Of a DNA stretch of 64,000 bases, positions 9,995 through 37,767 are shown in pieces (the stretch's first letter is position 1; each line of letters begins with the position of its first letter). The DNA comes from an uncultured Clostridia bacterium. GTDB lineage: Bacteria; Bacillota; Clostridia; Christensenellales; Borkfalkiaceae. The DNA lies in contig CANRCK010000001.1 of assembly GCA_947629095.1 (NCBI GenBank), positions 1-64,000 on the forward strand, read 5' to 3'. Under the pieces are notes generated by a model. That model was not told the DNA's origin. It ran no database searches and worked only from the letters and a program-made list of their open reading frames with translations. The position numbers were made by a program, and so were the translations under genes.

Positions 9995-10755
9995 TTCCGT
10001 TTAAACCTCGTTCCGACATTCTCTCCGTTTACCGCCCCGTATAAAATTTGCGGGTCGGCGCCGTTGGCGATTATCATATCTATCCCCGCCTGCATACACC
10101 TCTTTGCCGCGGAAAGCTTGGTTGCCATACCACCCGTGCCCAACGAGCTGCCCGCTCCACCTGCAAGCGACTCGATTTTATCGTCTATATCATTTACCTC
10201 CGGAACAATCCGCGCGGCAGCGTCCCTGTGCGGATCAGCCGTATACAACCCGTTGATATCCGAAAGAAGGACGAGCAAATCCGCTTTTACTATTACGGAC
10301 ACTACGGCGGCAAGCGTGTCGTTATCTCCAACAACTATTTCGTCGGTAGCTACCGTGTCGTTTTCATTGATTATAGGGATAGCCCCAAAGCCAATCAAAC
10401 GGAAAAGCGTGTTTTCGAGGTGTGCTCTGCGTACGGGATTTTCAACGTCGTCGCCCGTAATTAAAATTTGTGCGACAGTATGATTATATTCACCGAAGAG
10501 CTTATCGTATACATACATAAGCTCACACTGACCAACGGCTGCTGCCACCTGTTTTGAGGGCACGTCCTCAGGGCGTGAAGAAAGACCGAGCTTACCCACT
10601 CCCATTGCAATTGCGCCGGACGACACAAGCAACACCTCGTGCCCTGCGTTCTGCAAATCGGAAATAACTTCACAAAGCTTGCCCACCCGGCGTATATTCA
10701 ATTTTCCGTTTGGGTACGTTAGCGTTGACGTACCAACCTTTACTACAATCCTCAT
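9991..10755 (-). CDS. proB: glutamate 5-kinase, short form without PUA domain
   Basis: Phosphorylates glutamate with ATP, the first and feedback-controlled step of proline synthesis. Predicted 254 aa from ATG 10755. Motifs seen: VKVGTSTL (N-terminal nucleotide/substrate loop), SSGAIAMG, INENDTVAT, GDNDTLAA and GTGGMATKLSAAK. The protein ends where the amino acid kinase domain ends, so the C-terminal PUA domain of the E. coli enzyme is absent; short forms are known in other Firmicutes. An in-frame TTG at 10794 lies inside the -35 box and is not a plausible start. No SD precedes ATG 10755 and the -10 box ends 10 nt before it, so the mRNA is predicted to be nearly leaderless. Confidence 0.95.
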   Translation of the reverse strand: MRIVVKVGTSTLTYPNGKLNIRRVGKLCEVISDLQNAGHEVLLVSSGAIAMGVGKLGLSSRPEDVPSKQVAAAVGQCELMYVYDKLFGEYNHTVAQILITGDDVENPVRRAHLENTLFRLIGFGAIPIINENDTVATDEIVVGDNDTLAAVVSVIVKADLLVLLSDINGLYTADPHRDAAARIVPEVNDIDDKIESLAGGAGSSLGTGGMATKLSAAKRCMQAGIDMIIANGADPQILYGAVNGENVGTRFKRK

Positions 10756-10765
10756 ATTTTTATCT

Positions 10766-10794
10766 AAAATACAACTTTTTTGCCGTTCCGTCAA
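10766..10794 (-). promoter_or_regulatory. proBA promoter abutting the start codon
   Basis: TTGACG (10789-10794) and TATTTT (10766-10771) are 17 bp apart on the minus strand. The -10 box ends 10 nt before ATG 10755, predicting a 5' UTR of about 3-4 nt. Confidence 0.7.
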
Positions 10795-10827
10795 TAAATT
10801 TCTTTAAAAAGTATTGCTGTAACGCTT

Positions 10828-10857
10828 AAAACGGCAGAGCGTTAATTGCCCTGCCGC
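10828..10857 (-). terminator. terminator of gdhA
   Basis: On the minus strand a stem CGGCAG(GGC)/(GCT)CTGCCG with an AT loop is followed by TTTT. It lies between gdhA and the proB promoter. Confidence 0.75.
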
Positions 10858-10876
10858 AGTATAAAATGTTCTTTAA

Positions 10877-12229
<1,353 letters not shown>

Positions 12230-12264
12230 TTATGCGCATAATTATATAAATTTTATTTATGGAC

Positions 12265-12293
12265 ATTATAACATAGGCTTAATTTTTTATCAA
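12265..12293 (-). promoter_or_regulatory. gdhA promoter
   Basis: TTGATA (12288-12293) and TATAAT (12265-12270) are 17 bp apart on the minus strand. The predicted leader is about 47 nt. Confidence 0.85.
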
Positions 12294-12498
12294 TCAATAG
12301 CGCGCGCAGATACTATTCCGATAACTTATACATAGTATAAACTACACTTATAGTTTGGGGGCTAAATTTGCCTTACCGTCGGAAAATTATCTGCTTTATG
12401 TCCAATATAAAAATTCAGACTATGTGCAACAAATATTAACATATGCAAATTGCTGAATTAGCAAGGCTTGGGGGAGGGCAGGTTTTCTCACGTTTTTA
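12294..12498. other. non-coding spacer between gdhA promoter and tRNA-Ser terminator
   Basis: This is the middle part of a gap of about 326 bp between gdhA and tRNA-Ser. It is AT-rich, with a weak palindromic run near 12328-12346 (TTATACATAGTATAA). I see no credible ORF or RNA gene in it. Confidence 0.5.
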
Positions 12499-12531
12499 TA
12501 AAAAAAGAACGCAAGTTTGTTCAACTTACGT
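12499..12531 (-). terminator. terminator of tRNA-Ser
   Basis: On the minus strand arms ACGTAAGTT and AACTTGCGT around GAACA are followed by TCTTTTTTT. The sequence is closely related to the tRNA-Leu terminator at 26112. Confidence 0.9.
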
Positions 12532-12537
12532 CCCACT

Positions 12538-12628
12538 TGGCGCAGAGAAGAGGATTTGAACCTCCGGACGGGTATCAGCCGCCACACGATTTCCAATCGT
12601 GCGCCTTAAGCCACTCAGCCATCTCTGC
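12538..12628 (-). tRNA. tRNA-Ser (anticodon GGA)
   Basis: The acceptor is GCAGAGA/TCTCTGC with discriminator G and an encoded CCA (12538-12540). The anticodon stem CACGA/TCGTG holds loop TTGGAAA, giving GGA. A long variable arm is present, as expected for serine tRNAs. Confidence 0.96.
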
Positions 12629-12662
12629 ATCGTTGCCCGGCATTTTTCAGCCCAGCTATTTA

Positions 12663-12691
12663 ATGATATAAAATTTCTTTGAAAAAATCAA
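12663..12691 (-). promoter_or_regulatory. promoter of tRNA-Ser
   Basis: TTGATT (12686-12691) and TATCAT (12663-12668) are 17 bp apart on the minus strand. The start is predicted about 28 nt before the mature tRNA. Confidence 0.7.
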
Positions 12692-12742
12692 GTATTTTTA
12701 TTATTTCTCAACGATTTTATCTCAAAATTTATTAACTTATAG

Positions 12743-13132
12743 TCACAGGACGGCATAATCCGTAAGCAAAAGCTTATCAAGAGCGCGGAAGTTTTCTGGG
12801 TAAGCGTTTTCTCCGCGATATCTGATTATTTTGCCGTCGGAAAATTTTATTGAAAGTTCCCAAATACGCTCGCTTAAGCACCGCTCCTTAATTAAGTACC
12901 TCTTCTTCCACTTATTTACGTGCAATCCACTGAACGCAACCAAAAATTCTTTCTTTTTGCCGCCGTAAAACCGCAGCAGTTCACCCGTGACGTGCCTTTT
13001 ATAATATCCAACGTCGCTGCCGTCGGCTCTTACCACGATGTTTACAGCACGAAGATATTTATTTGTTGAAAATGATATTTCCGTGAACTGCTGCATACGC
13101 TTGTCAAAACCGTTTATTCTTTTGCTTATCAT
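12743..13132 (-). CDS. hypothetical protein, 129 aa
   Basis: I do not recognise this protein. It is soluble, basic and rich in aromatic residues, without a signal peptide or transmembrane segment. Its C-terminal half (IKFSDGKIIRYRGENAYPENF) looks like beta strands ending in a short helix. SD AGAGG precedes ATG 13132. It is divergent from the thioesterase gene, and a 25-bp inverted repeat lies between them. Nothing in the context assigns a function. Confidence 0.75.
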   Translation of the reverse strand: MISKRINGFDKRMQQFTEISFSTNKYLRAVNIVVRADGSDVGYYKRHVTGELLRFYGGKKKEFLVAFSGLHVNKWKKRYLIKERCLSERIWELSIKFSDGKIIRYRGENAYPENFRALDKLLLTDYAVL

Positions 13133-13166
13133 ATTTTTATCCTCTTTTAATTATATTTTAAGGCAT

Positions 13167-13191
13167 AAATATGACGAAAAACGTCATATTT
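13167..13191. promoter_or_regulatory. 25-bp inverted repeat between divergent genes
   Basis: Perfect 10-bp arms AAATATGACG and CGTCATATTT flank AAAAA. It lies between the hypothetical gene and the thioesterase promoter (-35 box at 13208). There is no T-run on either side, so an operator is more likely than a terminator. Confidence 0.6.
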
Positions 13192-13207
13192 AAAAATAAA
13201 TTTAAAG

Positions 13208-13236
13208 TTGACAGCAAAATTTTTATATGATAAAAT
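13208..13236 (+). promoter_or_regulatory. thioesterase promoter abutting the start codon
   Basis: TTGACA (13208-13213) and TAAAAT (13231-13236) are 17 bp apart. The -10 box ends 7 nt before ATG 13244, which predicts a leaderless mRNA. Confidence 0.8.
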
Positions 13237-13243
13237 CATCTAT

Positions 13244-13744
13244 ATGAAAGTTCTAAAAAAACAAAGAAACAGTAAGATGTGCATTATGTGCGGACTTGAC
13301 AATGAGTACGGAGTGCGCGCGCCTTTCTATTCGATGGAGGACGGAACCGTTACCACTCTCTTCTCCTACCGCGAACAGCATCAGAGTTACCCGGGCAGGG
13401 TTCACGGCGGACTTATAACGGCAATGCTGGATGAACTTGGGCTTAGGGCGCTTTGGGCGACGGAGCTTGACGAAAAAACATTCGGAGTTACGCTGTCGCT
13501 TGAAACAAAGTACAGAAAACCCGTACCCTACGGTGTGGAGCTTTTGGGGCACGGAAAGATAGTTAAGGATACGGGTAATTTTTTAACCGCAGAAACGCGC
13601 ATACTTGACAGGGACGGGCAGGTGCTTGCCAACGGCATAATCAAGTACGTAAAGCTCGATCCGCAGAAGATTCAGGCAGGAGTTGTAACGCACGAGGAAA
13701 TGTGTTACCTGATTGACGACGGGATATCCGAAATCGATATATAA
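13244..13744 (+). CDS. PaaI-type hotdog-fold thioesterase
   Basis: Predicted 166 aa protein of the acyl-CoA thioesterase hotdog superfamily. The core shows HGGLITAMLDELGLRA, where the helix-capping HGG and the acidic D/E of the active site lie, followed by the strand VTLSLETKYRKPVPYG. An N-terminal CxxC (MCIMCG) is shared by some clostridial members. The substrate is unknown. The in-frame TTG at 13208 is the -35 box and is not the start. ATG 13244 has no SD and fits a leaderless transcript; ATG 13277 is the alternative. A shared terminator separates it from hom. Confidence 0.88.
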   Translation: MKVLKKQRNSKMCIMCGLDNEYGVRAPFYSMEDGTVTTLFSYREQHQSYPGRVHGGLITAMLDELGLRALWATELDEKTFGVTLSLETKYRKPVPYGVELLGHGKIVKDTGNFLTAETRILDRDGQVLANGIIKYVKLDPQKIQAGVVTHEEMCYLIDDGISEIDI

Positions 13745-13756
13745 AATTGCATTATA

Positions 13757-13783
13757 AAAGCCTCCGGACAATCCGGAGGCTTT
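13757..13783. terminator. bidirectional terminator between thioesterase gene and hom
   Basis: Arms AAAGCCTCCGGA / TCCGGAGGCTTT with a 3-nt loop, between convergent genes. Confidence 0.93.
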
Positions 13784-13799
13784 ATGGTTTTTACGGGAA

Positions 13800-15089
13800 T
13801 TATGAAACAACGCGTATCACAGCCGCCACGCGCGTTTCGGTTAAATCTTTATCTATTGCCGCTACAGCCTTTTTTATATTGGACTCGCGCGTGGAATGCG
13901 TAACCAAAATAAGGTTGACTGCACCTTCCTTGTCGTTCCCATCGATATCCTGCACTACCTGCGCAACGCTTATGCCATATTTGCCGAGAACAGACGTAAC
14001 CTTTGAAAGCTCGCCCGCCTTGTCGGCGGCAAGAAATCTAAGATAATAAGCGCTTTGGAAATTTGTTATAAATTTGGTATCGGGAGCGGCGGTTTCGGTG
14101 TTTTCAAATGTGGAATACCTGTGCTGTGTGTGGGTTGCGCAATAGATTACGTCGCCTACAATCGCACTGCCTGTGGGAAGCGCGCCTGCGCCGCGACCGT
14201 ATAACATAACGTCCCCCACGCTGTCGCCCGTGATATAGACGGCATTATAGCTGTCGTTTACGCTTGCAAGCGGATGATTTACTCGTACAAAAGAAGGATG
14301 CACACGGACTTCAACTCCCTTTTCGGAATCCTTGCCTATGGCAAGAAGCTTAATCACGTAGCCAAGCTTTTTGCCGTAAGCTATGTCCACGGGAGAAATG
14401 TTTGTGATGCCCTCGCGATAAATTTCGGTGTAGGGTATTTTTTTATTGAAACAGATGCTGGAAAGAATGGAGAGCTTATAAGTTGCGTCATATCCATCCA
14501 CGTCCGAAGTGGGATCGGCTTCGGCATAGCCGAGAGCCTGCGCTTCCTTTATTACTTCCCCGTACGACTTGCCGTCGTTGGTCATCTTTGTGAGAATATA
14601 ATTGGTGGTGCCGTTGATAATGCCTATAAGGGAAGTTATTTTGTTGCCCTGAAGGTTATCCAAAAGAGCGCGTATTACGGGAACGCCGCCTACGCATGTT
14701 GCTTCATAGAACAAACCTACGTGATTGTGCTTTGCGGCTTTTTCAAGCTCGTAGCCGTATTTGCAGTAGAGTTCCTTGTTGGAAGTTACAACCGACTTGC
14801 CGGCATTCAACGCGGCAAGGACGTAGGATTTTGCAGGTTCAACGCCGCCCATTACCTCTATAATAATATCAACCTCTGGATTAGAGCAAACCTCTGAAAT
14901 GTTTGAGGCTACTTTGCTTTCATCGACGCCGAGGGCATGAATACGCTCCTTGCGCACTTCGAGAACGGACTCTACAGATATATCTACACCGTGGGTCTGA
15001 ATATATTTTTGTCTGTGCTCGGTAAGGATTTTATATGTTCCTCCGCCCACAACGCCGAGTCCCAAAATGGCAACGCCGACTTTTTTCAT
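13800..15089 (-). CDS. hom: homoserine dehydrogenase with ACT domain
   Basis: NAD(P)H-dependent reduction of aspartate semialdehyde to homoserine, on the route to threonine and methionine. Predicted 429 aa from ATG 15089, which has GGAGG 7-8 nt upstream. The N-terminal Rossmann motif is AILGLGVVGGG. The catalytic domain has ADPTSDVDGYD. The C-terminal ACT domain (about 350-420, beginning YYLRFLAADKAGELSKV) suggests allosteric feedback. It overlaps coaX by 4 bp and is the last gene of a three-gene operon with coaX and a probable vitamin transporter. No other threonine gene is nearby. Confidence 0.95.
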   Translation of the reverse strand: MKKVGVAILGLGVVGGGTYKILTEHRQKYIQTHGVDISVESVLEVRKERIHALGVDESKVASNISEVCSNPEVDIIIEVMGGVEPAKSYVLAALNAGKSVVTSNKELYCKYGYELEKAAKHNHVGLFYEATCVGGVPVIRALLDNLQGNKITSLIGIINGTTNYILTKMTNDGKSYGEVIKEAQALGYAEADPTSDVDGYDATYKLSILSSICFNKKIPYTEIYREGITNISPVDIAYGKKLGYVIKLLAIGKDSEKGVEVRVHPSFVRVNHPLASVNDSYNAVYITGDSVGDVMLYGRGAGALPTGSAIVGDVIYCATHTQHRYSTFENTETAAPDTKFITNFQSAYYLRFLAADKAGELSKVTSVLGKYGISVAQVVQDIDGNDKEGAVNLILVTHSTRESNIKKAVAAIDKDLTETRVAAVIRVVS

Positions 15090-15868
15090 TTTTTTGCCTC
15101 CGTACAATTGAGATTATATAGATAGTTCAATCCGTTCAATGTAAGCAACTTGTCTACCTCGTCAATGCAAGAAATTTCTTTGGCTATCACTTCGGAAAAG
15201 CCGCCGGTTGCAATAACCTTTACGTTCTCGCACTTCATTTCACGTTTGATCCTTTTGACAAGATATTCAACCAGCCCGGCAAAGCCGTAAAAAATTCCGG
15301 ACTGCATATTGGTTACGGTATTTTTACCTATAACCCTTTCAGGGCGCTCTATTTCCACCCTCGGAAGTTTTGCCGTGCCGTTTACAAGACTGTCAAGCGA
15401 ACCTTTTATGCCCGGAGCTATTACACCGCCTATAAAATGACCGCGCTCATCGATTACGTTAAAAGTTGTTGCCGTTCCGAAATCCACCACAATCAAAGGA
15501 TAGCCGTATTTTTTAACCGCAGCTACGTTGTTGACAACCCTGTCGGCGCCTACTTCCTTTGCGTCGTCAACCTTTAAATTCAAACCCGTTTTAAGACCGG
15601 GTCCAAGCATAAGCGGCTTAATTTGCAGATATGTACGGCACATCCTGTCGAGCGTATAATCCAAAGACGGCACAACCGACGAAATTATTCCGCCGGTAAT
15701 CTGCTCCGCTTCTATTCCGTTATTGTTTAAAATGGATATGAGTTGAACGCCGTATTCATCGGAAGTGCGCTTGTGCTCGGTAGCTATGCGGAAGCTGAGT
15801 TTAAGCGTTTGCCCGTCAAATACGGCATATTTTATATTGGTATTGCCTACGTCAAGACAAAGTATCAT
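15086..15868 (-). CDS. coaX: type III pantothenate kinase
   Basis: Commits pantothenate to coenzyme A synthesis. The 260 aa protein has the ASKHA-fold motifs LCLDVGNTNIKYAVF (phosphate 1), GADRVVNNVAA, and VVDFGTATTFNVID, typical of CoaX, which is insensitive to CoA feedback. SD GAAGGTG precedes ATG. It overlaps the upstream membrane protein by 4 bp and hom downstream by 4 bp, so the three are co-translated. The upstream S-component-like protein may supply its substrate. Confidence 0.96.
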   Translation of the reverse strand: MILCLDVGNTNIKYAVFDGQTLKLSFRIATEHKRTSDEYGVQLISILNNNGIEAEQITGGIISSVVPSLDYTLDRMCRTYLQIKPLMLGPGLKTGLNLKVDDAKEVGADRVVNNVAAVKKYGYPLIVVDFGTATTFNVIDERGHFIGGVIAPGIKGSLDSLVNGTAKLPRVEIERPERVIGKNTVTNMQSGIFYGFAGLVEYLVKRIKREMKCENVKVIATGGFSEVIAKEISCIDEVDKLLTLNGLNYLYNLNCTEAKK

Positions 15869-16533
15869 TTAACACCTTCGGAGTCCGCGCTGTGCGCCGA
15901 ATTCAGCGTGGCTTCCGCCACAAAATCATTTTGAGCCGTGCTGTTTGCCGCTTTCTTGGGGGCTATCTTTTTGCCTATTTTCTGTAAAACCATTACATAT
16001 ATGGGTACAAGAATAAAGCAAGCCGCCAACTCAATAGGAAAATAGATGGCTATAGCTACCTCAAAAAGTTGGCTGAAAATACCCAATGCGTTGCCCGTCC
16101 AAATATTCACGGCAGAAATATATAAGACAGTATTCGTTACGGAGCCGACCACACCTGCAATTGCCGCGGGCAATTTTTCCTTTATGAATTTATTTTTACA
16201 TTTTCCGAAAAGCCGCGAAAGCCCGAAGTATGTCCAATAGGCGGTCACACCGATAAACATACGGGGCAAAACGCTGATCAGCGGATTTGCATAAAATACG
16301 AACGAGGGTAATATCAAGCAAAACAGGCAGCTTGCAAACCCAAGCAATGTGCCTCCGAGAAAGCTCTTGTGCCAATCGTCGTAAATACTCAAGGCTATAG
16401 AAACGGGAAGCGATAAAATGCAAGCCGTCACTCCCACTCCCGCCAACAACGTGCTCTCAAGAATAAAAAGCACGAAAATGAGCGCAGCCATTACACCGAC
16501 AAACGCGATAAAATGCGCCTTGTCCTTTTTCAT
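15865..16533 (-). CDS. ECF-type transporter S component, probably for pantothenate
   Basis: Predicted 222 aa, five to six transmembrane helices. The start is ATG 16533, with GGAGG 5 nt upstream; a longer in-frame ORF extends to 16572 without an SD. Size, topology and the conserved helical hairpins fit the substrate-binding S component of energy-coupling factor vitamin transporters, which use a shared EcfA/A'/T module encoded elsewhere. The 4-bp overlap with coaX suggests pantothenate as substrate (PanT-like); this is inference from context. The tail after the last helix is Ala/Ser-rich and of low complexity. Confidence 0.8.
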   Translation of the reverse strand: MKKDKAHFIAFVGVMAALIFVLFILESTLLAGVGVTACILSLPVSIALSIYDDWHKSFLGGTLLGFASCLFCLILPSFVFYANPLISVLPRMFIGVTAYWTYFGLSRLFGKCKNKFIKEKLPAAIAGVVGSVTNTVLYISAVNIWTGNALGIFSQLFEVAIAIYFPIELAACFILVPIYVMVLQKIGKKIAPKKAANSTAQNDFVAEATLNSAHSADSEGVK

Positions 16534-16639
16534 AAAAACCTCCGTCGGGTTCCGTATGGATACCCGCAGCAAAAAATATTATACTTTAACACGGTCGGAT
16601 TGACAGATATCCGCCGAAAGTACCTTAAAAATATGCTTT

Positions 16640-16668
16640 ATTATAACATCTGCAAAAAAGTTTGGCAA
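16640..16668 (-). promoter_or_regulatory. promoter of the transporter-coaX-hom operon
   Basis: TTGCCA (16663-16668) and TATAAT (16640-16645) are 17 bp apart on the minus strand. The leader is about 100 nt. A second TATAAT-like box with a poor -35 (CTGTCA) lies nearer the gene. Confidence 0.8.
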
Positions 16669-16785
16669 GCGATTGAGCGCAGTGTAACATTTTAACGAAA
16701 AAATAAATATTATTTAATATAAACTATACTGCACGCACTCCATACAATATTACATACGCCGTGCAGCTTTATCAAAGGAGGAATT

Positions 16786-17007
16786 ATGAACATTTTTTCG
16801 CAGTTTTGCGGCAACAACGGATGCCTTTGGATTTTGATCCTTTTACTTCTTGCGGCAAGTTGCAGCGGTAACGGGATAGAAAGCGTACTTGCAGGAAGCT
16901 GTACGCCCATACTTATAGCGCTGGTATACAGCATGTGGAGGAACGGTACGCTTGCAAATTTGCTCTACGGAAGCAACAACGGTTGCGGTTGCGGATGCAA
17001 CGGCTGA
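16786..17007 (+). CDS. Cys/Gly-rich small membrane protein
   Basis: 73 aa with a hydrophobic core (WILILLLLAASC) and a second hydrophobic segment, and the cysteine tail GCGCGCNG at the C-terminus. The SD AAAGGAGG is very strong. Similar Cys-rich micropeptides occur widely in Clostridia and are often annotated as high-cysteine proteins without a function. The CGCGC tail could bind metal or form disulfides; that is inference. It is a monocistronic unit closed by a strong terminator. Confidence 0.8.
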   Translation: MNIFSQFCGNNGCLWILILLLLAASCSGNGIESVLAGSCTPILIALVYSMWRNGTLANLLYGSNNGCGCGCNG

Positions 17008-17021
17008 GCCATAAGCAAACC

Positions 17022-17056
17022 AAAAGGGGTGCCCGCGGGCGCCCCTTTAATTTTGT
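17022..17056. terminator. terminator between micropeptide and Nudix gene
   Basis: Arms AAAGGGGTGCC / GGCGCCCCTTT (one G-T pair), then a T-rich run on the plus strand. It also overlaps the 3' end of the convergent Nudix gene. Confidence 0.88.
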
Positions 17057-21169: not shown

Positions 21170-22011
21170 CAGTTTGCCTCCTTTTTAAAGAGATTGCAGA
21201 ACGCGTCTCTTTCGCGTTTTTCAAAGTCGGCATACATTGAGGAGCGAGCCATTGCTTCGTCAAAATCAACCTCAAAGCCATTGAAATCCGGTCCGTCCAC
21301 ACAGGCAAATTTGGTCTTTCCTCCAACGGTCAGGCGGCAGCCACCGCACATTCCCGTGCCGTCGATCATTATGGGATTCATCGATACGGTCGTGGGGATA
21401 TTATAGGGTCTCGTTGTGGCGACCACAAACTTCATCATAATGAGAGGTCCTATTGCAATCACCTCGTCATAGCGCTCGCCGCTTTCGATTGTCTCCTTTA
21501 AAGGCAAAGTTACAACGCCCTGCTTACCGTAACTGCCGTCGTCGGTCATTACGGTGAGCTTGCTTGAACAAGCTTTAAATTCATTCTCCAAAATAAGCAA
21601 ATCTTTATTTCTGAAACCTATAACAGAATGTACCTCGGCGCCCTGCTCATATAGCTTTTGAGCTACAGGAAGGGCAATTGCACAACCAACGCCTCCGCCT
21701 ACGATACAAACTTTTTTAAGTCCCTCGGTTTTTGTGGCGCAGCCGAGAGGTCCCACAAAATCGGCAATAAACTCCCCCTCGTTCTTTTGGTTAAGGCGCA
21801 TCGTAGTGCCGCCAACTATCTGAAATATAATTTTAACAGTGCCTTTTTCACGATTATAGCCGGCAACGGTAAGTGGAATCCTTTCGCCGTCGTCGTCCAC
21901 GCGGAGTATTATAAACTGCCCCGCCTGCGCCTTTTTTGCAACGAGCGGTGCATAAATATCCATCATTGTGACGGTGGGATTGAGTTCCCGTTTATTAAGA
22001 ATCCTGTACAT
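21169..22011 (-). CDS. nfnA: NfnA-type FAD/NAD-binding subunit with [2Fe-2S] cluster
   Basis: 280 aa ferredoxin-NADP reductase-like protein. It has a FAD-binding beta-barrel (about 1-100), a nucleotide-binding motif VCIVGGGVGCA, and a C-terminal [2Fe-2S] site with cysteines in GTGMCGGCRLTV and KFACVDGPDF, as in dihydroorotate dehydrogenase B electron transfer subunits, SudB and NfnA. SD AAAGG lies upstream of ATG. It overlaps a small upstream gene by 17 bp and nfnB by 1 bp. With nfnB it should form the bifurcating complex in the cytosol. Confidence 0.88.
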   Translation of the reverse strand: MYRILNKRELNPTVTMMDIYAPLVAKKAQAGQFIILRVDDDGERIPLTVAGYNREKGTVKIIFQIVGGTTMRLNQKNEGEFIADFVGPLGCATKTEGLKKVCIVGGGVGCAIALPVAQKLYEQGAEVHSVIGFRNKDLLILENEFKACSSKLTVMTDDGSYGKQGVVTLPLKETIESGERYDEVIAIGPLIMMKFVVATTRPYNIPTTVSMNPIMIDGTGMCGGCRLTVGGKTKFACVDGPDFNGFEVDFDEAMARSSMYADFEKRERDAFCNLFKKEAN

Positions 22012-22258
22012 TGTTCCAAACCTTTTTATAGCTTTTTATACGTTTTATAAGGTAGAACGGAAATGGAGAATCGAACTCCGTGGCATACACGGTTTTGCGC
22101 ACAACGCCCTCTTGCAGGCGGTTATGCCTGCCCAAAGGCGCAGTTACAACGTCTCCTGCCGTCACTTCTTCAAAGTCGCACAAATACCAATACGTTAAGC
22201 CAACCACGTTTGGGTCGTCAACAAATTCAACTGCGGCAAAATAGTACCTATCTACCAT
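21995..22258 (-). CDS. small conserved-looking protein upstream of nfnA
   Basis: 87 aa. The segment GLTYWYLCDF...GDVVTAPLGRHNRLQEGVV resembles the small N-terminal beta domain of PriA-like proteins and looks like a compact beta fold; the resemblance is weak and I assign no function. It overlaps nfnA by 17 bp, so it is the first gene of the nfn operon. ATG 22258 has no SD, and a consensus promoter ends 9 nt before it, predicting a leaderless mRNA. Confidence 0.72.
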   Translation of the reverse strand: MVDRYYFAAVEFVDDPNVVGLTYWYLCDFEEVTAGDVVTAPLGRHNRLQEGVVRKTVYATEFDSPFPFYLIKRIKSYKKVWNNVQDS

Positions 22259-22267
22259 AATAAGAAT

Positions 22268-22296
22268 ATTATATCAATATATATACATAAATGCAA
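22268..22296 (-). promoter_or_regulatory. promoter of the nfn operon abutting the start codon
   Basis: TTGCAT (22291-22296) and TATAAT (22268-22273) are 17 bp apart on the minus strand. The -10 box ends 9 nt before ATG 22258. Confidence 0.85.
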
Positions 22297-29107: not shown

Positions 29108-29109
29108 TT

Positions 29110-30027: not shown

Positions 30028-31602
30028 TCAAGTAACCAAATCAATATACTCGTCGTAGGTAACTTTTTTATCAAACGTTTTTGTTCCGTTTATCTCTATA
30101 ATCCTGTTTGCCACGGTGTTCATAAGCTCCTGGTCGTGCGATGTAAGGAGCATGCAGCCGCGGAAGTTCTTCATACCGTTGTTGAGAGCGGTGATAGATT
30201 CAAGGTCGAGGTGGTTTGTGGGTTCGTCGAAAATCAAAAAATTACCGCCCTCGAGCATCATCTTCGCCAGCATACAGCGGACCTTTTCGCCGCCCGAAAG
30301 AACCTTTGCCTGTTTAAGAGCCTCCTCGCCCGAAAACAGCATTCTGCCGAGCCAACCGCGGAGATATTCCTCGTAATGGTCGGTAGAGAACTGCGAAATC
30401 CAGTCTACCAGCGTCAATTCGCAGCCCTGGAAATATTCGCTATTGTTTTCGGGGAAGTATGAAAAAGATATTGTTTTGCCCCATTTTACCGTACCTGCGT
30501 CAGGCTCGATTTTGCCTGCAAGTATATCGTAGAGCATTGAAACCGTGGTGCTCTTATCTGAAACTATGCCTATTTTTTCGTCTTTTTGAACGGTAAAGGA
30601 AAGATTTTCGAAGTAGCCTTTTTTTGTAAGCCCCTCCACCATCAGAATATCGTTGCCTATTTCCTTTTCGAACTTGAAATCAATATACGGATACTTTCTT
30701 AAAGAGGGCTTAAAATCGGCAAGCGTAAGCTTTTCAAGCTCCTTTTTTCTTGAAGTTGCCTGCCGCGACTTTGAAGCGTTTGCCGCAAACCTTGCAATAA
30801 ATTCCTGCAATTCCTTTGCGCGCTGCTCGTTCTTTTTATTTTGTTCGCGCTGCTGGCGGGCAAGCAATTGGCTCGTTTCATACCAAAAATCGTAGTTGCC
30901 GAGCATCATATTTATTTTACCGTAATCTACGTCGCAGATATAGGTGCATACCTTGTTCAAAAAGTGACGGTTGTGGGAAACGATTATTATAGTATTTTCA
31001 AAATCAAGCAAATAATTTTCAAGCCAACGGGTAGTTTTTATGTCGAGGTTATTCGTAGGCTCGTCCAAAAGCAAAATATCGGGATTGCCGAAAAGCGCCT
31101 GCGCAAGCAAAACTTTGATTTTGAGTTTTGCGTCGAGGTCGCGCATATATATATTATGGTATTCTTCGGTTATGTCGAGCGCGTTTAAAAGAGTTTGCGC
31201 CTCGTACTCCGCATCCCAGCCGCCGAGTTCGGCAAATTCGCTTTCAAGCTCGCTTGCGCGCACACCGTCCTCTTCCGAAAAGTCGGCTTTGGCGTATAGA
31301 GCGTCCTTTTCGTCCATTATATCCACAAGCCGCTTATGCCCGAGCATAACCGCGCGGAGAACGGTTACGTTGTCAAAGGCGTTCTGATTCTGTTGCAAAA
31401 CGGACATTCTCTCCGTTTTATCCATGGTGACATCGCCCTTATTCGGCTCGATTTCCCCGCTCAAAACCTTTAAAAAGGTGGACTTGCCCGCGCCGTTTGC
31501 GCCGATTATTCCATAGCAGTTACCCTTTGTGAATTTGAGATTAACATCCTCGAAAAGTTTTTTGCTGCCGTACTGAAGCGATACGTTGTTTACCTGAAGC
31601 AT
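30028..31602 (-). CDS. ABC-F ATPase, YbiT/YkpA type
   Basis: 524 aa with two fused nucleotide-binding domains and no membrane segment; ABC-F proteins act on the ribosome. NBD1 (about 1-250) has Walker A GANGAGKST and Walker B ILLLDEPTNNLD, with a poor signature (DLDAKLKIKV), as is usual in the YbiT branch. The linker motif FAANASKSRQATSR is typical of this branch. NBD2 (about 320-510) has signature LSGGEK and Walker B FLIFDEPTNHLD, but its P-loop reads GIVSDKSTTVS near residue 346 instead of GxxGxGKS/T. SD AAGGAG. It lies 29 nt after the ABC exporter pair and is probably in the same operon. Confidence 0.9.
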   Translation of the reverse strand: MLQVNNVSLQYGSKKLFEDVNLKFTKGNCYGIIGANGAGKSTFLKVLSGEIEPNKGDVTMDKTERMSVLQQNQNAFDNVTVLRAVMLGHKRLVDIMDEKDALYAKADFSEEDGVRASELESEFAELGGWDAEYEAQTLLNALDITEEYHNIYMRDLDAKLKIKVLLAQALFGNPDILLLDEPTNNLDIKTTRWLENYLLDFENTIIIVSHNRHFLNKVCTYICDVDYGKINMMLGNYDFWYETSQLLARQQREQNKKNEQRAKELQEFIARFAANASKSRQATSRKKELEKLTLADFKPSLRKYPYIDFKFEKEIGNDILMVEGLTKKGYFENLSFTVQKDEKIGIVSDKSTTVSMLYDILAGKIEPDAGTVKWGKTISFSYFPENNSEYFQGCELTLVDWISQFSTDHYEEYLRGWLGRMLFSGEEALKQAKVLSGGEKVRCMLAKMMLEGGNFLIFDEPTNHLDLESITALNNGMKNFRGCMLLTSHDQELMNTVANRIIEINGTKTFDKKVTYDEYIDLVT

Positions 31603-31631
31603 AGATACTCCTTAAAATTATTTTATATGCG

Positions 31632-33389
31632 TTAAATGGCAAATTGACTGTTATATAAAGTATAGTAAAAGCCGCCCTGTTTCAAAAGCTCGGCGTGGGT
31701 GCCCTTTTCTATAACGGCGCCGTCCTTCATCACCAAAATCAAGTCGGCTTCCTGTATGGTTGAAAGCCTGTGGGCGACGATAAAGCTCGTTCTGCCGGAC
31801 ATAAGCTTTGCAAAGGCGTCCTGTATACGACGTTCGGTGCGCGTGTCGATTGAAGACGTAGCCTCGTCCAAAATAAGCATCGGGGGAAGCGACAGCATAA
31901 TCCGCGTTATGCACAAGAGCTGCTTTTGCCCCTGCGAAAGGTTTCCGCCATCCTCGGCGATAACCGTGTCATAGCCCAGCGGAAGCTGCATTATAAAGTT
32001 ATGGGAGTGCGAAGCCTTTGCCGCCGCTATCATCTCCTCTTCGGTGGCGCCGGGTTTGCCGAGCAATATATTTTCGCGAACCGTTCCGTTTTTGAGCCAA
32101 GTATCCTGCAATACCATACCGTAGTTTGAGCGGAGAGATTTGCGTGTGACGCCGGTTATTTTTTTGCCGTCCACGGAAATATTGCCCGAAACGGGGTCGT
32201 AGAAGCGCATCAACAGATTAATAAGCGTTGTTTTGCCGCAGCCGGTAGGTCCCACTATTGCGATGCGTTGACCCGCCTTTACGCTGAGATTGAAATCTTC
32301 AATGAGCTTTCTGTCCGCCGTGTAGGAAAAATATACACGATCAAAGTCCACGGAGCCGTTTGCATTTTCCAAAATTTCGGCTTTGGGACTGTCGGGAAGC
32401 TCCGTAGGCTCGTCAATTACTTCGTAAATTCTGCCAGCGCAGGCTAAGGCGTTCTGCAACTCGGTGACGACGCCCGATATTTCGTTGAATGGCTTTGTGT
32501 ATTGGTTTGCATAAGACAAAAGACTTGTCAGCACACCCACCGAAAACGCAAGCGGCAGCGGCGTATTCAAAACAAGCATGAGAGCGCCGGTAAGCGCTAC
32601 CGCGGCATAGACGATTGAGTTGATAAAGCGGGTTGATGGATTGACAAGAGACGAAAAGAATATGGATTTAAGCGACTTTTTTGTGAGGCGCCCGTTGATC
32701 TCGTCGAACTTTTCAAGGTTTTCATCCTCGTGCGAAAATGCCTGTACCACCTTGAGGTTACCTATCATTTCATCGATAAAGGCAGTCTGCTCGCCGCGCA
32801 CTTCCGAGGTTTTTTTGAACATATCGTACGTGCGGGAGGCTATGAATTTTGCAACAAACAGCGAAAGCGGGGTAATTACCACCACTACAAGCGCTATTAT
32901 CCAATTTATTATAAGCATTAACACAAGCGTGCCCAAAATTGTCAAAACGCCCGTGAAAAGCTGTGTAAAGCCCATCAAAAGCCCGTCGGCAAACTGATCT
33001 ACGTCGGCAATTACCCTTCCGACGATATCGCCTTGGGAATGGGCGTCGATAAATCTGAGCGGCAGGCGCTGGATATGGCTGAAAGCTTCCTCACGGATAT
33101 CTTTTACAACGTTATAGGTTATCCTGTTGTTGATTTCGCTCATCAGCCATTGGGCAAGGCAAGTTACGCCTATAACTGCCGCAATTATTATGATTTTATT
33201 TATAATCGCCTTGAAATCCGTTCCGCCGCCGTCAATTATAAGGTCAACTATCTGCCCGAAAAATATGGGAACGGCGAGAGTCCCGGCAACCGTTATAATC
33301 GCAAAGAAAATTGTTGCCGCTATCCAAAGCTTATAGCGTTTAAGTTGTTTGAATATGCGCCTTAACACGCTTTTACGGGAGGTTGACAT
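31632..33389 (-). CDS. ABC exporter, consensus half (heterodimer partner)
   Basis: Predicted 585 aa from ATG 33389, which has GGAGG 9 nt upstream. N-terminal six-helix exporter domain, then an ATPase domain with GPTGCGKTTL (Walker A), LSQGQKQ (signature) and MLILDEATSSID (Walker B with catalytic Glu). It starts 1 bp after the stop of the other half-transporter. The pair fits the heterodimeric multidrug/lipid exporter type (BmrCD, LmrCD, TM287/288). The substrate is unknown. Confidence 0.93.
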   Translation of the reverse strand: MSTSRKSVLRRIFKQLKRYKLWIAATIFFAIITVAGTLAVPIFFGQIVDLIIDGGGTDFKAIINKIIIIAAVIGVTCLAQWLMSEINNRITYNVVKDIREEAFSHIQRLPLRFIDAHSQGDIVGRVIADVDQFADGLLMGFTQLFTGVLTILGTLVLMLIINWIIALVVVVITPLSLFVAKFIASRTYDMFKKTSEVRGEQTAFIDEMIGNLKVVQAFSHEDENLEKFDEINGRLTKKSLKSIFFSSLVNPSTRFINSIVYAAVALTGALMLVLNTPLPLAFSVGVLTSLLSYANQYTKPFNEISGVVTELQNALACAGRIYEVIDEPTELPDSPKAEILENANGSVDFDRVYFSYTADRKLIEDFNLSVKAGQRIAIVGPTGCGKTTLINLLMRFYDPVSGNISVDGKKITGVTRKSLRSNYGMVLQDTWLKNGTVRENILLGKPGATEEEMIAAAKASHSHNFIMQLPLGYDTVIAEDGGNLSQGQKQLLCITRIMLSLPPMLILDEATSSIDTRTERRIQDAFAKLMSGRTSFIVAHRLSTIQEADLILVMKDGAVIEKGTHAELLKQGGFYYTLYNSQFAI

Positions 33390-33390
33390 A

Positions 33391-35112
33391 TTATGCACCC
33401 TCCTTGGCGTATTGCGAATAGTGAATTTCACGGTACAGCCCGCACGATTTCAATAGTTCCTCATGCGTTCCCACACCAAGCATTTTGCCGCCGTCGAGCA
33501 CGATTATTTTATCGGCGTGGCGAATGGACGACGTTCTTTGGGATACAATGAACACCGTGGGATTGTAATCGAGAGTTTTTAAAGCCGAACGGAGCTTTGC
33601 GTCAGTTGCGTAGTCGAGCGCGGAGGAACTGTCGTCTAAAATTAGAATTTCCGGCTTTTTGACCAAAGCGCGGGCAATGGTAAGCCTTTGTCGCTGTCCG
33701 CCCGAAAAATTCTTGCCGCCCTGTTCTACACCTTCGTCAAGCCCGCCGTCCTTAGATGTTATTACATCCAAAGCCTGTGCAACCGTAATGGCGGCGCTTA
33801 TTTCTGCATCAGTCGCGTCTTTTTTGCCCCACTGCATATTTTGGCGGATCGTTCCCTCGAACAATACCGCGCGCTGGGGAACCACGCCGCACCTTTCGCG
33901 GAGAGCTTCGTCGCCTATGGCGTTCACATTTACGCCGCCGATCAGTATCCTGCCTGCGGAAACGTCATAAAAATGCGGAATGAGATTCACAAGAGTTGTT
34001 TTACCCGCGCCTGTGCCGCCTATGATGCCAATCGTCTGACCGCGTTCGGCGGTGAAGCTAATATCATCGAGAGCGTTCACGGCGGCATTGCCGTAATTTA
34101 CGCATACGTTTTCAAAACGGATATAAGCGCCGTCCTCCCGCTCCCGGCTGTTACCGTTTGCAAGCGACGGTTTCATTTCAAGAATTTCGGCAATCCTTCC
34201 TGCGCTGGCAAAGGATTTTGTTACGGTTATTATGAGATTGGCAAGCTTTATAAGCTCCACCAAAATCTGAGACATATAGTTATAGAGAGCTATCACCATG
34301 CCCTGCGTTAAAATTCCGTCCTCCACGCGGATTGCGCCGACATATAACAAAATAATTATTGCGGCGTTGATTACGGCGTAAGTGAGCGGATTCATTAAGG
34401 CGGAAATTCTGCCTACGAAGAGCTGTGATTTTTTGAGTTCGGTATTTCGGGCGTTGAATTCACTTATTTCATCCTCTTCCTTACAGAATGCGCGCAGTAC
34501 GCGGGCGCCTGCCAACGTTTCCCGCGTGGTAGCGGTGACCGAATCAAGCTTGCCCTGCGATTTTTTGTACAGAGGAATGCTGACGAGCATAATTGTGAAT
34601 ACGATAACGCACAGAACGGCAATGGATACCGCAAATATGCCGCCCGCCGCAGAGTCTATTATAAACGCCATTATCATAGCCCCGAAAACTATGAATGGCG
34701 AGCGCATAAATAATCTCAAAACAAGATTTACGCCCGACTGGATCTGGTTTACGTCGCTCGTCATACGGGTTATCATGCGCGGCGTGCCCAAAGAATCTAT
34801 CTGGCTGTAGGAAAGCGACTGCAATTTGGAGAACAAATCGTGCCGTAGCTCTTTTGAAAAGCCGACGGCGGCGCGAGCGGCAAAATATTGGGCGGCGACG
34901 GCGGCAACAAGCCCGACAACGCCCAGGGCAAGCAAAATAAGGCAGGCATAAATTATATAGCTGACGCCCACCCCCGCCTTTACGCCGTTATCCACAATAG
35001 CCGCAACGATTATGGGAACAAACAGCTCAAAACACGCCTCAAGCAGTTTGAAAAGAGGCGCAAGCACCGACTGGACCTTATAATTTTTTAAATACTTTAA
35101 AAGCTTGCCCAT
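33391..35112 (-). CDS. ABC exporter, degenerate-site half (heterodimer partner)
   Basis: Predicted 573 aa from ATG 35112. Six-helix exporter domain (about 15-310) and an ATPase domain with GGTGAGKTTL, FSGGQRQRL and ILILDDSSSALD. The catalytic Glu after Walker B is Asp, the hallmark of the degenerate ATP site in heterodimeric exporters, so it must pair with the downstream half. No SD; a promoter ends 8 nt before the ATG, predicting a leaderless mRNA. An in-frame TTG at 35118 is less likely. It is divergent from the rRNA methyltransferase gene. Confidence 0.93.
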   Translation of the reverse strand: MGKLLKYLKNYKVQSVLAPLFKLLEACFELFVPIIVAAIVDNGVKAGVGVSYIIYACLILLALGVVGLVAAVAAQYFAARAAVGFSKELRHDLFSKLQSLSYSQIDSLGTPRMITRMTSDVNQIQSGVNLVLRLFMRSPFIVFGAMIMAFIIDSAAGGIFAVSIAVLCVIVFTIMLVSIPLYKKSQGKLDSVTATTRETLAGARVLRAFCKEEDEISEFNARNTELKKSQLFVGRISALMNPLTYAVINAAIIILLYVGAIRVEDGILTQGMVIALYNYMSQILVELIKLANLIITVTKSFASAGRIAEILEMKPSLANGNSREREDGAYIRFENVCVNYGNAAVNALDDISFTAERGQTIGIIGGTGAGKTTLVNLIPHFYDVSAGRILIGGVNVNAIGDEALRERCGVVPQRAVLFEGTIRQNMQWGKKDATDAEISAAITVAQALDVITSKDGGLDEGVEQGGKNFSGGQRQRLTIARALVKKPEILILDDSSSALDYATDAKLRSALKTLDYNPTVFIVSQRTSSIRHADKIIVLDGGKMLGVGTHEELLKSCGLYREIHYSQYAKEGA

Positions 35113-35120
35113 ATGCAAAA

Positions 35121-35149
35121 ATTATAACATTTGCCGTTTAAAAAAGCAA
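35121..35149 (-). promoter_or_regulatory. ABC exporter promoter abutting the start codon
   Basis: TTGCTT (35144-35149) and TATAAT (35121-35126) on the minus strand, 17-bp spacing. The -10 box ends 8 nt before ATG 35112. Confidence 0.8.
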
Positions 35150-35165
35150 ATTATTATAAATGCGT

Positions 35166-35194
35166 TTGCAATTATTATTATAATTTGGTAAAAT
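35166..35194 (+). promoter_or_regulatory. rRNA methyltransferase promoter abutting the start codon
   Basis: TTGCAA (35166-35171) and TAAAAT (35189-35194), 17-bp spacing. The -10 box ends 6 nt before ATG 35201. An alternative TATAAT lies at 35179-35184. Confidence 0.75.
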
Positions 35195-35200
35195 TCGGGT

Positions 35201-36364
35201 ATGGGTTATTCGGTATATTTAAAAAAGAATGAAGAAAAAAGAATTATCGGCGGTCACAGCTGGGTATATGCAAACGAAGTTGCAAGAACGGAAGGTAAAG
35301 ACAAAAACGGAAGCCTTGCCTCGGTTTTTGCTTCGGACGGAAGATTTATTGGCAAGGGCTATATTAACCATGCGTCTAAAATATTGGTGCGCATATTTAT
35401 CCGCAACGACGAAACGGACGACAGAGCTTTTTATCTAAAAAAAATACGCGAAGCAAACGATTATCGCCTCAGGCTGGGATATTCAAACTGTTACAGAATG
35501 GTATTTGCGGAGGCTGACGGACTGCCCGCGCTGATCATTGATAAATACGGCGACTATCTCGTTATGCAGTGTCTCTCGCTCGGCATCGATATGAGGAAAG
35601 CAATGATATGCGATTGCCTTATTGAACTTTTCAGCCCAAAGGGAATTTACGAGCGGAGCGACGTTGCCGTGAGAAAAAAAGAGGGGCTTGCCGAGGTTAA
35701 GGGACTGTTATACGGCGAAGTTCCCGACTATTGTGAAATATGCGAAAACGGCATAAAAATGCTTGTGGACGTAAAAAACGGACAAAAAACGGGCTACTTT
35801 TTGGACCAAAAAGAAAACAGACTTGCGGCAAGGAGATATGCAAAAGGCGAAGTTTTGGACTGCTTTTGCAACAGCGGAGGATTTTCGCTGAATGCCGCAA
35901 CCGTTGCACAAAAAGTTATTGCGTGTGATATATCGGAGCTTGCATTAAAAAACGTGCGCGATAACGCGGAGTTGAACGGGTTTATCAATATCGAAACGCT
36001 GTGCGGCGACGTGTTCGATACCCTGCGCGCTTTCAAAAAAGAAAAACGGCAATTCGATACTATAATTCTGGATCCTCCCGCCTTCTGCAAAACAGCCGAC
36101 GAGGTGCGGGACGCTTACCGAGGCTATAAGGACATAAACCTTACGGCTATGAAAATTGTTAAGAGCGGCGGATTTTTGATAACCTGCTCCTGCTCGCACT
36201 ATATGACCGCAAATCTGTTTGAAAAAGCATTGCAGGAAGCCGCGCGTGAAAGCGGGCGGCAGGTGCGTTGCGTTGAAATAAAATCACAGGCACCCGACCA
36301 CCCAGCCGCACTCGGCGCCGAAGAGACAAGCTATTTAAAGTTCTACGTTTTGAATATAATTTAG
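35201..36364 (+). CDS. 23S rRNA m5C methyltransferase, RlmI family
   Basis: 387 aa: N-terminal PUA-like domain (about 1-75: HSWVYANEV), a middle RlmI-type domain (FAEADGLPALIIDKYGDYLVMQ) and a SAM-dependent methyltransferase domain. The latter has GYFLDQKENR, the SAM loop VLDCFCNSGGFSLNA, DPPAFCKT (motif IV) and a Cys-containing ITCSCSHYM. The E. coli homologue RlmI makes m5C1962 in 23S rRNA; the position used here is inferred. No SD; leaderless start predicted. It is divergent from the ABC exporter. Confidence 0.93.
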   Translation: MGYSVYLKKNEEKRIIGGHSWVYANEVARTEGKDKNGSLASVFASDGRFIGKGYINHASKILVRIFIRNDETDDRAFYLKKIREANDYRLRLGYSNCYRMVFAEADGLPALIIDKYGDYLVMQCLSLGIDMRKAMICDCLIELFSPKGIYERSDVAVRKKEGLAEVKGLLYGEVPDYCEICENGIKMLVDVKNGQKTGYFLDQKENRLAARRYAKGEVLDCFCNSGGFSLNAATVAQKVIACDISELALKNVRDNAELNGFINIETLCGDVFDTLRAFKKEKRQFDTIILDPPAFCKTADEVRDAYRGYKDINLTAMKIVKSGGFLITCSCSHYMTANLFEKALQEAARESGRQVRCVEIKSQAPDHPAALGAEETSYLKFYVLNII

Positions 36365-36429
36365 CGCAAATCCCCAGCAAACAGTGTATTTATGTGTGAC
36401 ATAGTACTATATAAACACATTAAAATTGC

Positions 36430-36460
36430 AAAAAGCCGCGGCAATGCCGCGGCTTTTTAT
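36430..36460. terminator. bidirectional terminator
   Basis: AAAAAGCCGCGGC / GCCGCGGCTTTTT with a 3-nt loop, between the methyltransferase gene and the convergent serS. Confidence 0.95.
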
Positions 36461-36477
36461 TATGGATTTTTACATTT

Positions 36478-37767
36478 TTATTTAACAGCTATTTTATCTA
36501 TACCGCCCATATACTTGCGTAAAGGCTCGGGAATATAAACGCTGCCGTCCGCCTGAAGATGATTTTCAAGGAAGGCAATAAGCATTCTGGGGGGCGCCAC
36601 CACTGTGTTATTCAAGGTGTGCGCATACTCGTTTTTGCCGGTCTTTTCATTTTTGTATTTGATGCCCAGACGGCGCGCCTGCGCGTCGGTAAGATTTGAG
36701 CAGCTACCCACTTCAAAGTACTTGCCCTGCCTTGGACTCCACGCCTCCACATCGCAGCTCTTATACTTTAAATCGGCTAAATCGCCCGAGCAACAGATGA
36801 GCTGGCGAACGGGGATTTCGAGAGATACGAAAAGCTCTACGGTGTAGCGCCACATTTTTTCATACCACTCGTCACTCTGCTCGGGTTTGCAGATGACTAT
36901 CATTTCCTGCTTTTCGAACTGGTGAATGCGGTAAATGCCGCGCTCCTCTATGCCGTGCGCGCCCTTCTCCTTTCTGAAACAAGGGGAATATGACGTTAGC
37001 GTGAGAGGCAGGGAGCTTTCCGGAATCGTCTGCCCCATAAATCTGCCTATCATAGAGTGCTCGGAGGTACCTATAAGATACAGGTCTTCGCCCTCTATCT
37101 TATACATCATTCCGTCCATCTCTTCAAAGGACATAACGCCCGAAACAACGTCGCTTCTGATCATAAAAGGCGGTATGCAGTAAGTGAACCCCTTGTCTAT
37201 CATAAAGTCACGGGCATAAGTCAAAATGGCGGAATGAAGCCGCGCAATATCGCCCGTCAAATAATAGAATCCGTTTCCGCTTGTGCGCCTTGCGCTGTCG
37301 AGGTCGATGCCGTTGAGTCTTTCGAGGATATCTACATGGTAGGGAACCTCAAAAGGCTTGGGTTCTGCCTTTAAAAATACTTCGCCCTGAACATTTTCGC
37401 CGTCGTCCTTGCCGATTGGAACGTCGTCCGCAATGATATTGGGGATAGAGCACAGCGCCTTTTTTAAGACCACCTCTATTTCGGAGCTCTCCTTCTCTAT
37501 TTCGGCAACGCGGTCGTTATTGGCTTTGGAAGCCTCCTTTGCCGCCTCCGCCTCTTCCTTTTTACCCTCACGCATGAGCGAACCTATGGATTTTGCAAAC
37601 TTGTTGCGGTCGGCGCGGCGGCTGTCGCCCTCCTGCTGGAGTTCGCGGCGCTTTTTATCGAGTTCCAACACTTCGTCCACGAGGGGAAGCTTGTGGAACT
37701 GAAACTTCTTTTTGATGTTCTCCCGAACGGCGTCGGGATTTTCACGTATAAAATTGATGTCTAACAT
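36478..37767 (-). CDS. serS: seryl-tRNA synthetase
   Basis: Charges tRNA-Ser. The 429 aa protein has the N-terminal coiled-coil arm (about 1-115) that grips the long variable arm of tRNA-Ser. The class II core follows: TSEHSMIGRF, motif 2 CFRKEKGAHGIEERGIYRIH, and motif 3 near APPRMLIAFLEN. No T-box leader is present. ATG 37767 has no SD and the promoter -10 box ends 7 nt upstream, so this essential gene is predicted to have a leaderless mRNA. It is divergent from a P-type ATPase gene. Confidence 0.97.
   Translation of the reverse strand: MLDINFIRENPDAVRENIKKKFQFHKLPLVDEVLELDKKRRELQQEGDSRRADRNKFAKSIGSLMREGKKEEAEAAKEASKANNDRVAEIEKESSEIEVVLKKALCSIPNIIADDVPIGKDDGENVQGEVFLKAEPKPFEVPYHVDILERLNGIDLDSARRTSGNGFYYLTGDIARLHSAILTYARDFMIDKGFTYCIPPFMIRSDVVSGVMSFEEMDGMMYKIEGEDLYLIGTSEHSMIGRFMGQTIPESSLPLTLTSYSPCFRKEKGAHGIEERGIYRIHQFEKQEMIVICKPEQSDEWYEKMWRYTVELFVSLEIPVRQLICCSGDLADLKYKSCDVEAWSPRQGKYFEVGSCSNLTDAQARRLGIKYKNEKTGKNEYAHTLNNTVVAPPRMLIAFLENHLQADGSVYIPEPLRKYMGGIDKIAVK

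What the first reader, a model, noticed from the sequence alone, without database searches (positions are those of the whole stretch)
10755..37767. Recurrent leaderless-type gene starts in a clostridial genome
Six genes have a sigma-A type promoter with exactly 17-bp spacing whose -10 hexamer ends 6-10 nt before an ATG that lacks a Shine-Dalgarno: proB (10 nt), thioesterase (7), nfn leader gene (9), ABC exporter (8), RlmI-family methyltransferase (6) and serS (7). Bacterial transcription usually starts 6-8 nt after the -10 box, so the mRNAs should begin at or within about 4 nt of the AUG. Other genes in the same window have very strong SDs, so both modes would coexist. Leaderless mRNAs are abundant in Actinobacteria and Deinococcus but are not thought of as routine in Clostridia.
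Basis: partly seen in the sequence, partly recalled or inferred. Interest (0 to 1): 0.7.

Follow-up and report, generated by a model that had tools for sequence, protein, structure and literature searches.

The report
Leaderless gene starts in gut Clostridia
In this uncultured clostridial bacterium a small but real share of genes carry the promoter so close to the start codon that the messenger RNA should begin at or just before the start codon itself, a layout found across its family but hardly in excess in other Clostridia.

Summary
In detail: all six genes have the stated TTGxxx-17-(-10) promoter ending 6, 7, 7, 8, 9 and 10 nt before an SD-less ATG. It is not chance. In 864 kb of the genome (58%), promoter-to-ATG distances peak at exactly 6 nt, which would put the A of AUG at +1, then fall and give way to a broad leadered class. 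At 5-10 nt there are 34 of 887 candidate starts against 3 of 3711 internal ATGs; 32 of 34 lack an SD, against 24 of 95 at 20-45 nt. About 5.7% of called genes are of this type.

Four of the six recur in relatives: an 87-aa ORF (16 of 16 relatives where found), RlmI, an ABC exporter (three genera), and in close relatives the thioesterase. Two do not: serS (2 of 80 relatives; 68 keep a -10 20-50 nt away) and proB.

The 5-8 nt spacing is twice the 12-15 nt control in the window's family (114 of 121 genomes higher) and in one sister family, against 1.08 over 372 genomes of other clostridial orders. No RNA 5' ends were measured. Known kind of gene start, new lineage.

The parts
13208..13744 (+). 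Thioesterase (4HBT) gene, ATG 13244; -35 13208-13213, -10 13231-13236 (TAAAAT), gap 7 nt, no SD
   Evidence: PF03061, E 1.2e-10; promoter near the ATG in the four close orthologues L238-L241, three by the strict test with -35; not in the more distant ones
21995..22296 (-). 87-aa leader ORF before the nfn-like gene, ATG 22258; -35 22291-22296, -10 22268-22273 (TATAAT), gap 9 nt, no SD
   Evidence: found in 16 of the 19 other loci read; all 16 have TATAAT 6-10 nt before ATG with a TTG -35 at 16-18 bp
33391..35149 (-). ABC exporter gene, ATG 35112; -35 35144-35149, -10 35121-35126 (TATAAT), gap 8 nt, no SD
   Evidence: same layout with -35 in 8 of the 29 other loci read (genera g1, g3, g5); also G006, L001, L002
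35166..36364 (+). RlmI-family rRNA methyltransferase gene, ATG 35201; -35 35166-35171, -10 35189-35194 (TAAAAT), gap 6 nt, no SD; divergent from the ABC exporter
   Evidence: leaderless-type in 6 of 6 orthologues found (G006, L001, L002, L142-L144; score >8); of the three loci also put to the strict test, two pass
36478..37803 (-). serS, ATG 37767; -35 37798-37803, -10 37775-37780 (TATAAT), gap 7 nt, no SD
   Evidence: gap 5-10 only in L001 and L002 of 80 relatives; 68 of 80 have a -10 20-50 nt away (67 with -35)
9991..10794 (-). proB, ATG 10755; -35 10789-10794, -10 10766-10771 (TATTTT), gap 10 nt, no SD; weakest case
   Evidence: one of the 19 other loci read (L279) has a near promoter; L269 has the same -35/-10 pair but a longer leader

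Best explanation
These are real leaderless (or 1-4 nt leader) transcription units. A sigma-A type promoter is placed so that RNA polymerase starts at, or just before, the A of the AUG; the ribosome must then start on a 5'-terminal AUG without Shine-Dalgarno pairing. The mode coexists with ordinary SD initiation in the same genome, covers about 5-6% of called genes (37 of the 169 with a promoter found within 60 nt), is kept at several loci across species and at one across genera, and can arise by loss of the leader between a conserved promoter and the start codon, as at serS. Shown: the spacing peak, SD absence, conservation of the layout at some loci, the missing serS leader. Inferred: the 5' end, the translation mechanism and the direction of the serS change.
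For: Spacing histogram peaks at k=6 (18) with 13 in all over k=11-18; starts 34/887 vs internal ATGs 3/3711; no SD in 32/34 at k5-10 vs 24/95 at k20-45; base before ATG at k=6 is T in 20/20 (G000 and G006), against 20/71 at the same promoter position in leadered promoters; 16/16 relatives for the leader ORF, 6/6 for RlmI, 8 of 29 other ABC exporter loci in three genera; serS promoter aligned with the leader missing; family-wide 2855 vs 1419 matches at 5-8 vs 12-15 nt, 114 of 121 genomes, against 7559 vs 7009 in 372 genomes of other orders.
Against: No 5' ends measured. Turnover is large: of 196 orthologue comparisons of leaderless genes 41 were leaderless-type, 107 had an SD and 48 neither; the 41 count ABC exporter and RlmI from two queries, and at least three are false starts. 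T before ATG is common also at leadered starts (79/113). proB is not supported by relatives. The own genome's 25 vs 15 for the perfect promoter is weaker than the family ratio. The negative control is weak: 1 of 34 promoter-start pairs in two genomes, few genes called, p 0.02. Gene caller and matrices are home-made; in the one-best-per-gene counts the start was chosen with the promoter in view.
Confidence: 0.85

Rival explanations
1. Chance juxtaposition of AT-rich -10-like hexamers and ATG codons in AT-rich intergenic DNA.
For: One search finds many loose matches inside genes; 12-15 nt gaps are also well filled in the family (1419 matches).
Against: Sharp peak at one gap, 18 at candidate starts against 0 at internal ATGs; the spacing recurs at orthologues whose spacer letters differ; the excess is found in 114 of 121 family genomes but is 1.08 over 372 genomes of other orders.
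Confidence: 0.04
2. The near promoters are real but the working mRNA comes mainly from a further upstream promoter, so translation uses a leader.
For: In C. phytofermentans potentially leaderless genes generally had another upstream TSS and kept an RBS (PMC5171806, passages). I did not search systematically for second promoters.
Against: Here 32 of 34 starts lack an SD; the ABC exporter and RlmI genes share an 88-bp divergent gap that leaves little room for leaders; 68 of 80 serS relatives have a -10 at 20-50 nt, and in the four relatives aligned it lines up with the window's near one.
Confidence: 0.08
3. The AT-rich box is a non-SD ribosome-binding or S1-type enhancer, as proposed for other phyla, not a promoter.
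For: AT-rich signals before non-SD genes are discussed as possible RPS1 sites (PMC5397173, passages).
Against: A TTG -35 sits at 16-18 bp in 17 of 17 copies of the leader ORF and in 9 of 11 ABC exporter loci with a near -10; at serS the same -35/-10 pair stays, further away, when there is a leader.
Confidence: 0.03

Closest known systems
Leaderless genes with a -10 motif adjacent to the ORF in Deinococcus-Thermus (PMC12340547, passages)
   Same: A -10 box a few bp before the start codon with spacing requirements, no leader
   Different: There about a third of D. radiodurans genes; here about 5.7% of called genes, in Clostridia; my score includes a -35, so its presence is partly by construction
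Leaderless genes predicted in Firmicutes by Zheng et al. 2011 (PMC3160421, passages)
   Same: TA-type signal upstream of the start, a few per cent of genes
   Different: That survey's table gives Firmicutes 56 (/209), 4.2 (2.4, 16.6), and the text says they concentrate in Lactobacillales and Mycoplasma; the passages do not mention this lineage
Rare leaderless transcripts mapped in Clostridia: C. difficile 15 genes (PMC7438776), C. phytofermentans 4% of one TSS class with RBS retained (PMC5171806), C. autoethanogenum about 70, about 2%, with <10 nt 5' UTR (PMC6873888); passages
   Same: Same class, same kind of mRNA, there measured
   Different: Fewer, and in C. phytofermentans with an RBS and another TSS; here SD-less, predicted only, and in part conserved between species or genera

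Membership tests
leaderless genes (leaderless mRNA) | -10 box at a fixed 5-10 nt before the start codon, more often than chance | tested here: met
leaderless genes (leaderless mRNA) | no Shine-Dalgarno sequence | tested here: met
   32 of 34 without; six of six in the window by sequence
leaderless genes (leaderless mRNA) | AUG start codon | tested here: met
   42 ATG, 4 TTG, 3 GTG at k5-10 in G000 and G006; not clearly different from leadered starts (113, 20, 4); all six window genes ATG
leaderless genes (leaderless mRNA) | start codon is the true start | tested here: met
   for the six window genes orthologous N-termini align from the ATG; no protein data
leaderless genes (leaderless mRNA) | mRNA 5' end at or within a few nt of AUG | not testable with these tools
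   no transcriptome available
leaderless genes (leaderless mRNA) | translation from a 5'-terminal AUG without SD pairing (70S or IF2-assisted route, recalled) | not testable with these tools
   no test here
sigma-A promoter | -35 and -10 hexamers with about 17-bp spacer | tested here: met
   six of six in the window at 17 bp; the proB -10 is weak

The most novel reading that the evidence does not exclude
In this clostridial lineage leaderless initiation is a maintained second start mode, not residual noise: leaders are lost by deletion and then kept away at a set of RNA-modification, tRNA, DNA-repair and transport genes, so that a group of housekeeping genes would escape SD-dependent control and leader-targeting antibiotics.
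Probability: 0.3. Interest if true: 0.7.

Novelty: new member of a known kind. Interest (0 to 1): 0.48.

Why it matters
Gene callers that look for an SD may misplace such starts in a large group of uncultured bacteria. serS gives a natural pair, the same promoter with and without a leader in relatives at 82-93% protein identity, to study how leaderless genes arise. The lineage also offers a clostridial setting in which SD and leaderless starts coexist, with an intact anti-SD in the one same-genus 16S rRNA seen.

Tried and rejected
Loose -10-to-ATG counting and a first free-spacing mixture model were too noisy in this genome: the model's -10 motif drifted to AT-rich stretches, and no clear peak was seen (the serS loci did show one at 6 nt); they were replaced by the promoter-scored tests. 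The idea that leaderless starts are general to Clostridia, suggested alone, was rejected after the matched-gap control. One search had first summed only 205 of the 372 genomes of other orders; one search added the other 167 (2794 against 2811) and lowered the ratio from 1.14 to 1.08. Small samples of G034, G049, G064, G069 and G055 (0-2 cases each) are too small to estimate rates. One search, two genomes of other families, is a weak control (209 genes called in 400 kb). The proB alignment used wrong locus coordinates and is not used. In one search three serS relatives (L011, L035, L074) were flagged leaderless-type at another in-frame codon upstream; none has a -10 at 5-10 nt from the serS ATG. 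Pfam gave nothing for the 87-aa ORF. Papers: PMC6028130 is not held. Searches for leaderless with Christensenellales and with Borkfalkia found no paper.

Full report
What is there. The window lies in a 1.49-Mb, 85% complete genome of 14 contigs. The best SerS relatives are uncultured Clostridia, with Candidatus Coproplasma, Scatosoma and Borkfalkia among the 80 loci kept of 574; NCBI places Borkfalkia in Christensenellales and Coproplasma in Eubacteriales incertae sedis. The GTDB family name Borkfalkiaceae is recalled, not from a call; the search tool calls the family f1. Products: proB and serS by NCBIfam, RlmI-type by NCBIfam below the curated cut-off, thioesterase and ABC exporter by Pfam.

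Is it more than chance. I took 864 kb of the genome, called 645 genes with a home-made caller and scored promoters with matrices learned from intergenic DNA of G000 and G006. Candidate ATG starts with a promoter, by gap: 5 nt 1, 6 nt 18, 7 nt 6, 8 nt 4, 9 nt 3, 10 nt 2; then 13 over gaps 11-18 and a broad class from 19 on. Internal ATGs of the same genes: 3 of 3711 at 5-10 nt, none at 6, against 34 of 887 and 18 of 887 (Fisher 1e-21 and 1e-13). SD: none in 32 and weak in 2 of 34 at 5-10 nt; none in 24, weak in 37, strong in 34 of 95 at 20-45 nt (Fisher 7e-13). With one best promoter per gene and any start codon, 37 of 645 genes (5.7%) fall at 5-10 nt, 12 at 11-18, 108 at 19-59 and 12 at 0-4, so 37 of the 169 genes with a promoter found. 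In 400 kb of G006, the genome of SerS relative L009, 12 of 279 genes. In two genomes of other clostridial families, 200 kb each, 1 of 209 genes called, or 1 of 34 promoter-start pairs against 34 of 185 (p 0.02); this control is weak.

Where the RNA should start. With a gap of 6 the A of AUG is the seventh base after the -10, the usual +1 (recalled). The base before it is T in 20 of 20 cases in G000 and G006 together, as expected for a pyrimidine at -1, against 20 of 71 at the same promoter position in leadered promoters; but T is also common before leadered ATGs (79 of 113), so this is moderate support.

Conservation. Leader ORF of the nfn-like gene: 39 of 41 genus genomes have a match to the downstream gene; 20 loci were read, 19 besides the window, and tblastn finds the ORF in 16 of those 19. 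All 16, and the window, have TATAAT 6-10 nt before ATG and a TTG -35 at 16-18 bp; 16 of the 17 have no SD motif; identities go down to 51%. RlmI: 6 of 6 orthologues found are leaderless-type by score; under the stricter test two of the three relatives tested pass. ABC exporter: all 61 family genomes have a match and 30 of the best loci were read; 9 of 30, the window included, have -10 and -35 at gaps 7-9, in genera g1, g3 and g5; two more have a near -10 without -35, L142 has a weaker -10, and the others show no such promoter there (some may be paralogues or genes inside operons, not tested). G006, L001 and L002 also have it. Thioesterase: in 10 of 41 genus genomes, the window's included; the four close orthologues (88-93%) have a promoter near ATG, three by the strict test; the distant ones do not. 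serS: of 80 relatives only L001 and L002 have a -10 at 5-10 nt; 68 have one at 20-50 nt (67 with a -35), 2 at 51-60, 8 none found; 76 of 80 have a strong or weak SD motif. The alignment shows the promoter core kept and the leader missing. proB: of 19 other loci read one (L279) has a near promoter; the others are leadered or unclear, and L269 has the same TTGACG/TATTTT pair with a longer leader. Over all orthologue comparisons of leaderless genes 41 of 196 were leaderless-type, against 2 of 37 for leadered genes; the 196 are dominated by serS and by an unnamed 317-aa gene, which mostly are not, and the 41 count two genes from two queries and include at least three false starts. Turnover is thus considerable.

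Spread. The perfect promoter with ATG 5-8 nt away was counted in 121 genomes of the family, 18 genera: 2855 matches against 1419 at 12-15 nt, ratio 2.01 (1.89-2.15), more at 5-8 in 114 of 121. The own genome has 25 against 15. Sister family f2: 148 against 70 in 8 genomes. Four other families of the order, 5 genomes: 76 against 69. All 372 genomes of other orders in the class sample: 7559 against 7009, ratio 1.08 (1.04-1.11); the families f21 (1.45) and f34 (1.35) are higher. So the excess is concentrated here, not general.

Machinery. The anti-SD is intact in a same-genus 16S rRNA (G518; 3 of 21 genomes had a 16S match, G000 not among them). A multi-domain S1 match is seen in 10 of 13 same-genus genomes but not in G000, G518 and G524; the genomes are incomplete, so nothing is built on it. 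Leaderless genes elsewhere in the genome include those for TrmL, TrmB, TsaE, a TcdA-like protein, SmpB, RuvX, a PcrA-like helicase, RdgB, IspE, GlpK, an MntR-like protein and YunB; the '-like' ones are below the curated cut-off, and GlpK was scanned as a partial protein. No enrichment test was made.

Literature (passages only). Zheng et al. 2011: Firmicutes 56 (/209), concentrated in Lactobacillales and Mycoplasma. Mapped Clostridia have few: 15 genes in C. difficile, about 2% in C. autoethanogenum, 4% of one TSS class in C. phytofermentans with RBS retained. StartLink cites a prediction of leaderless transcription in 21.6% of bacterial species. Among the rows listed by my searches (several lists were capped at 20) I saw no paper on leaderless genes in this lineage.

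Verdict. A real mode of gene starts, ordinary in kind but concentrated in this lineage, and new for this group as far as my searches go; the RNA evidence is still to be got.

Noticed in passing
window 21995-22258 (-): Conserved 87-aa ORF overlapping the start of the nfn-like gene; no Pfam hit at E 1; it reminds me, from recall, of the N-terminal domain of PriA.
   Followed up: partly
window 37866-40517 (+): An 883-aa ORF with TATAAT 14 nt before its ATG and no clear SD: possibly an ultrashort leader of about 7 nt.
   Followed up: no
G000, G518, G524: No multi-domain S1 protein match in these three of 13 same-genus genomes, while the other ten have one in a frame of about 500-740 aa.
   Followed up: no
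ABC exporter loci L146, L147, L150, L152, L153: At gaps of 8-9 the bases before ATG are CGT in all five, which would fit a start two nt before AUG.
   Followed up: no
class sample: Families f21 and f34 of other orders show a weaker excess (1.45 and 1.35) of near promoters.
   Followed up: no
window vs the 864-kb sample that includes it: Window GC is 45.6% but the sample averages 49%.
   Followed up: no
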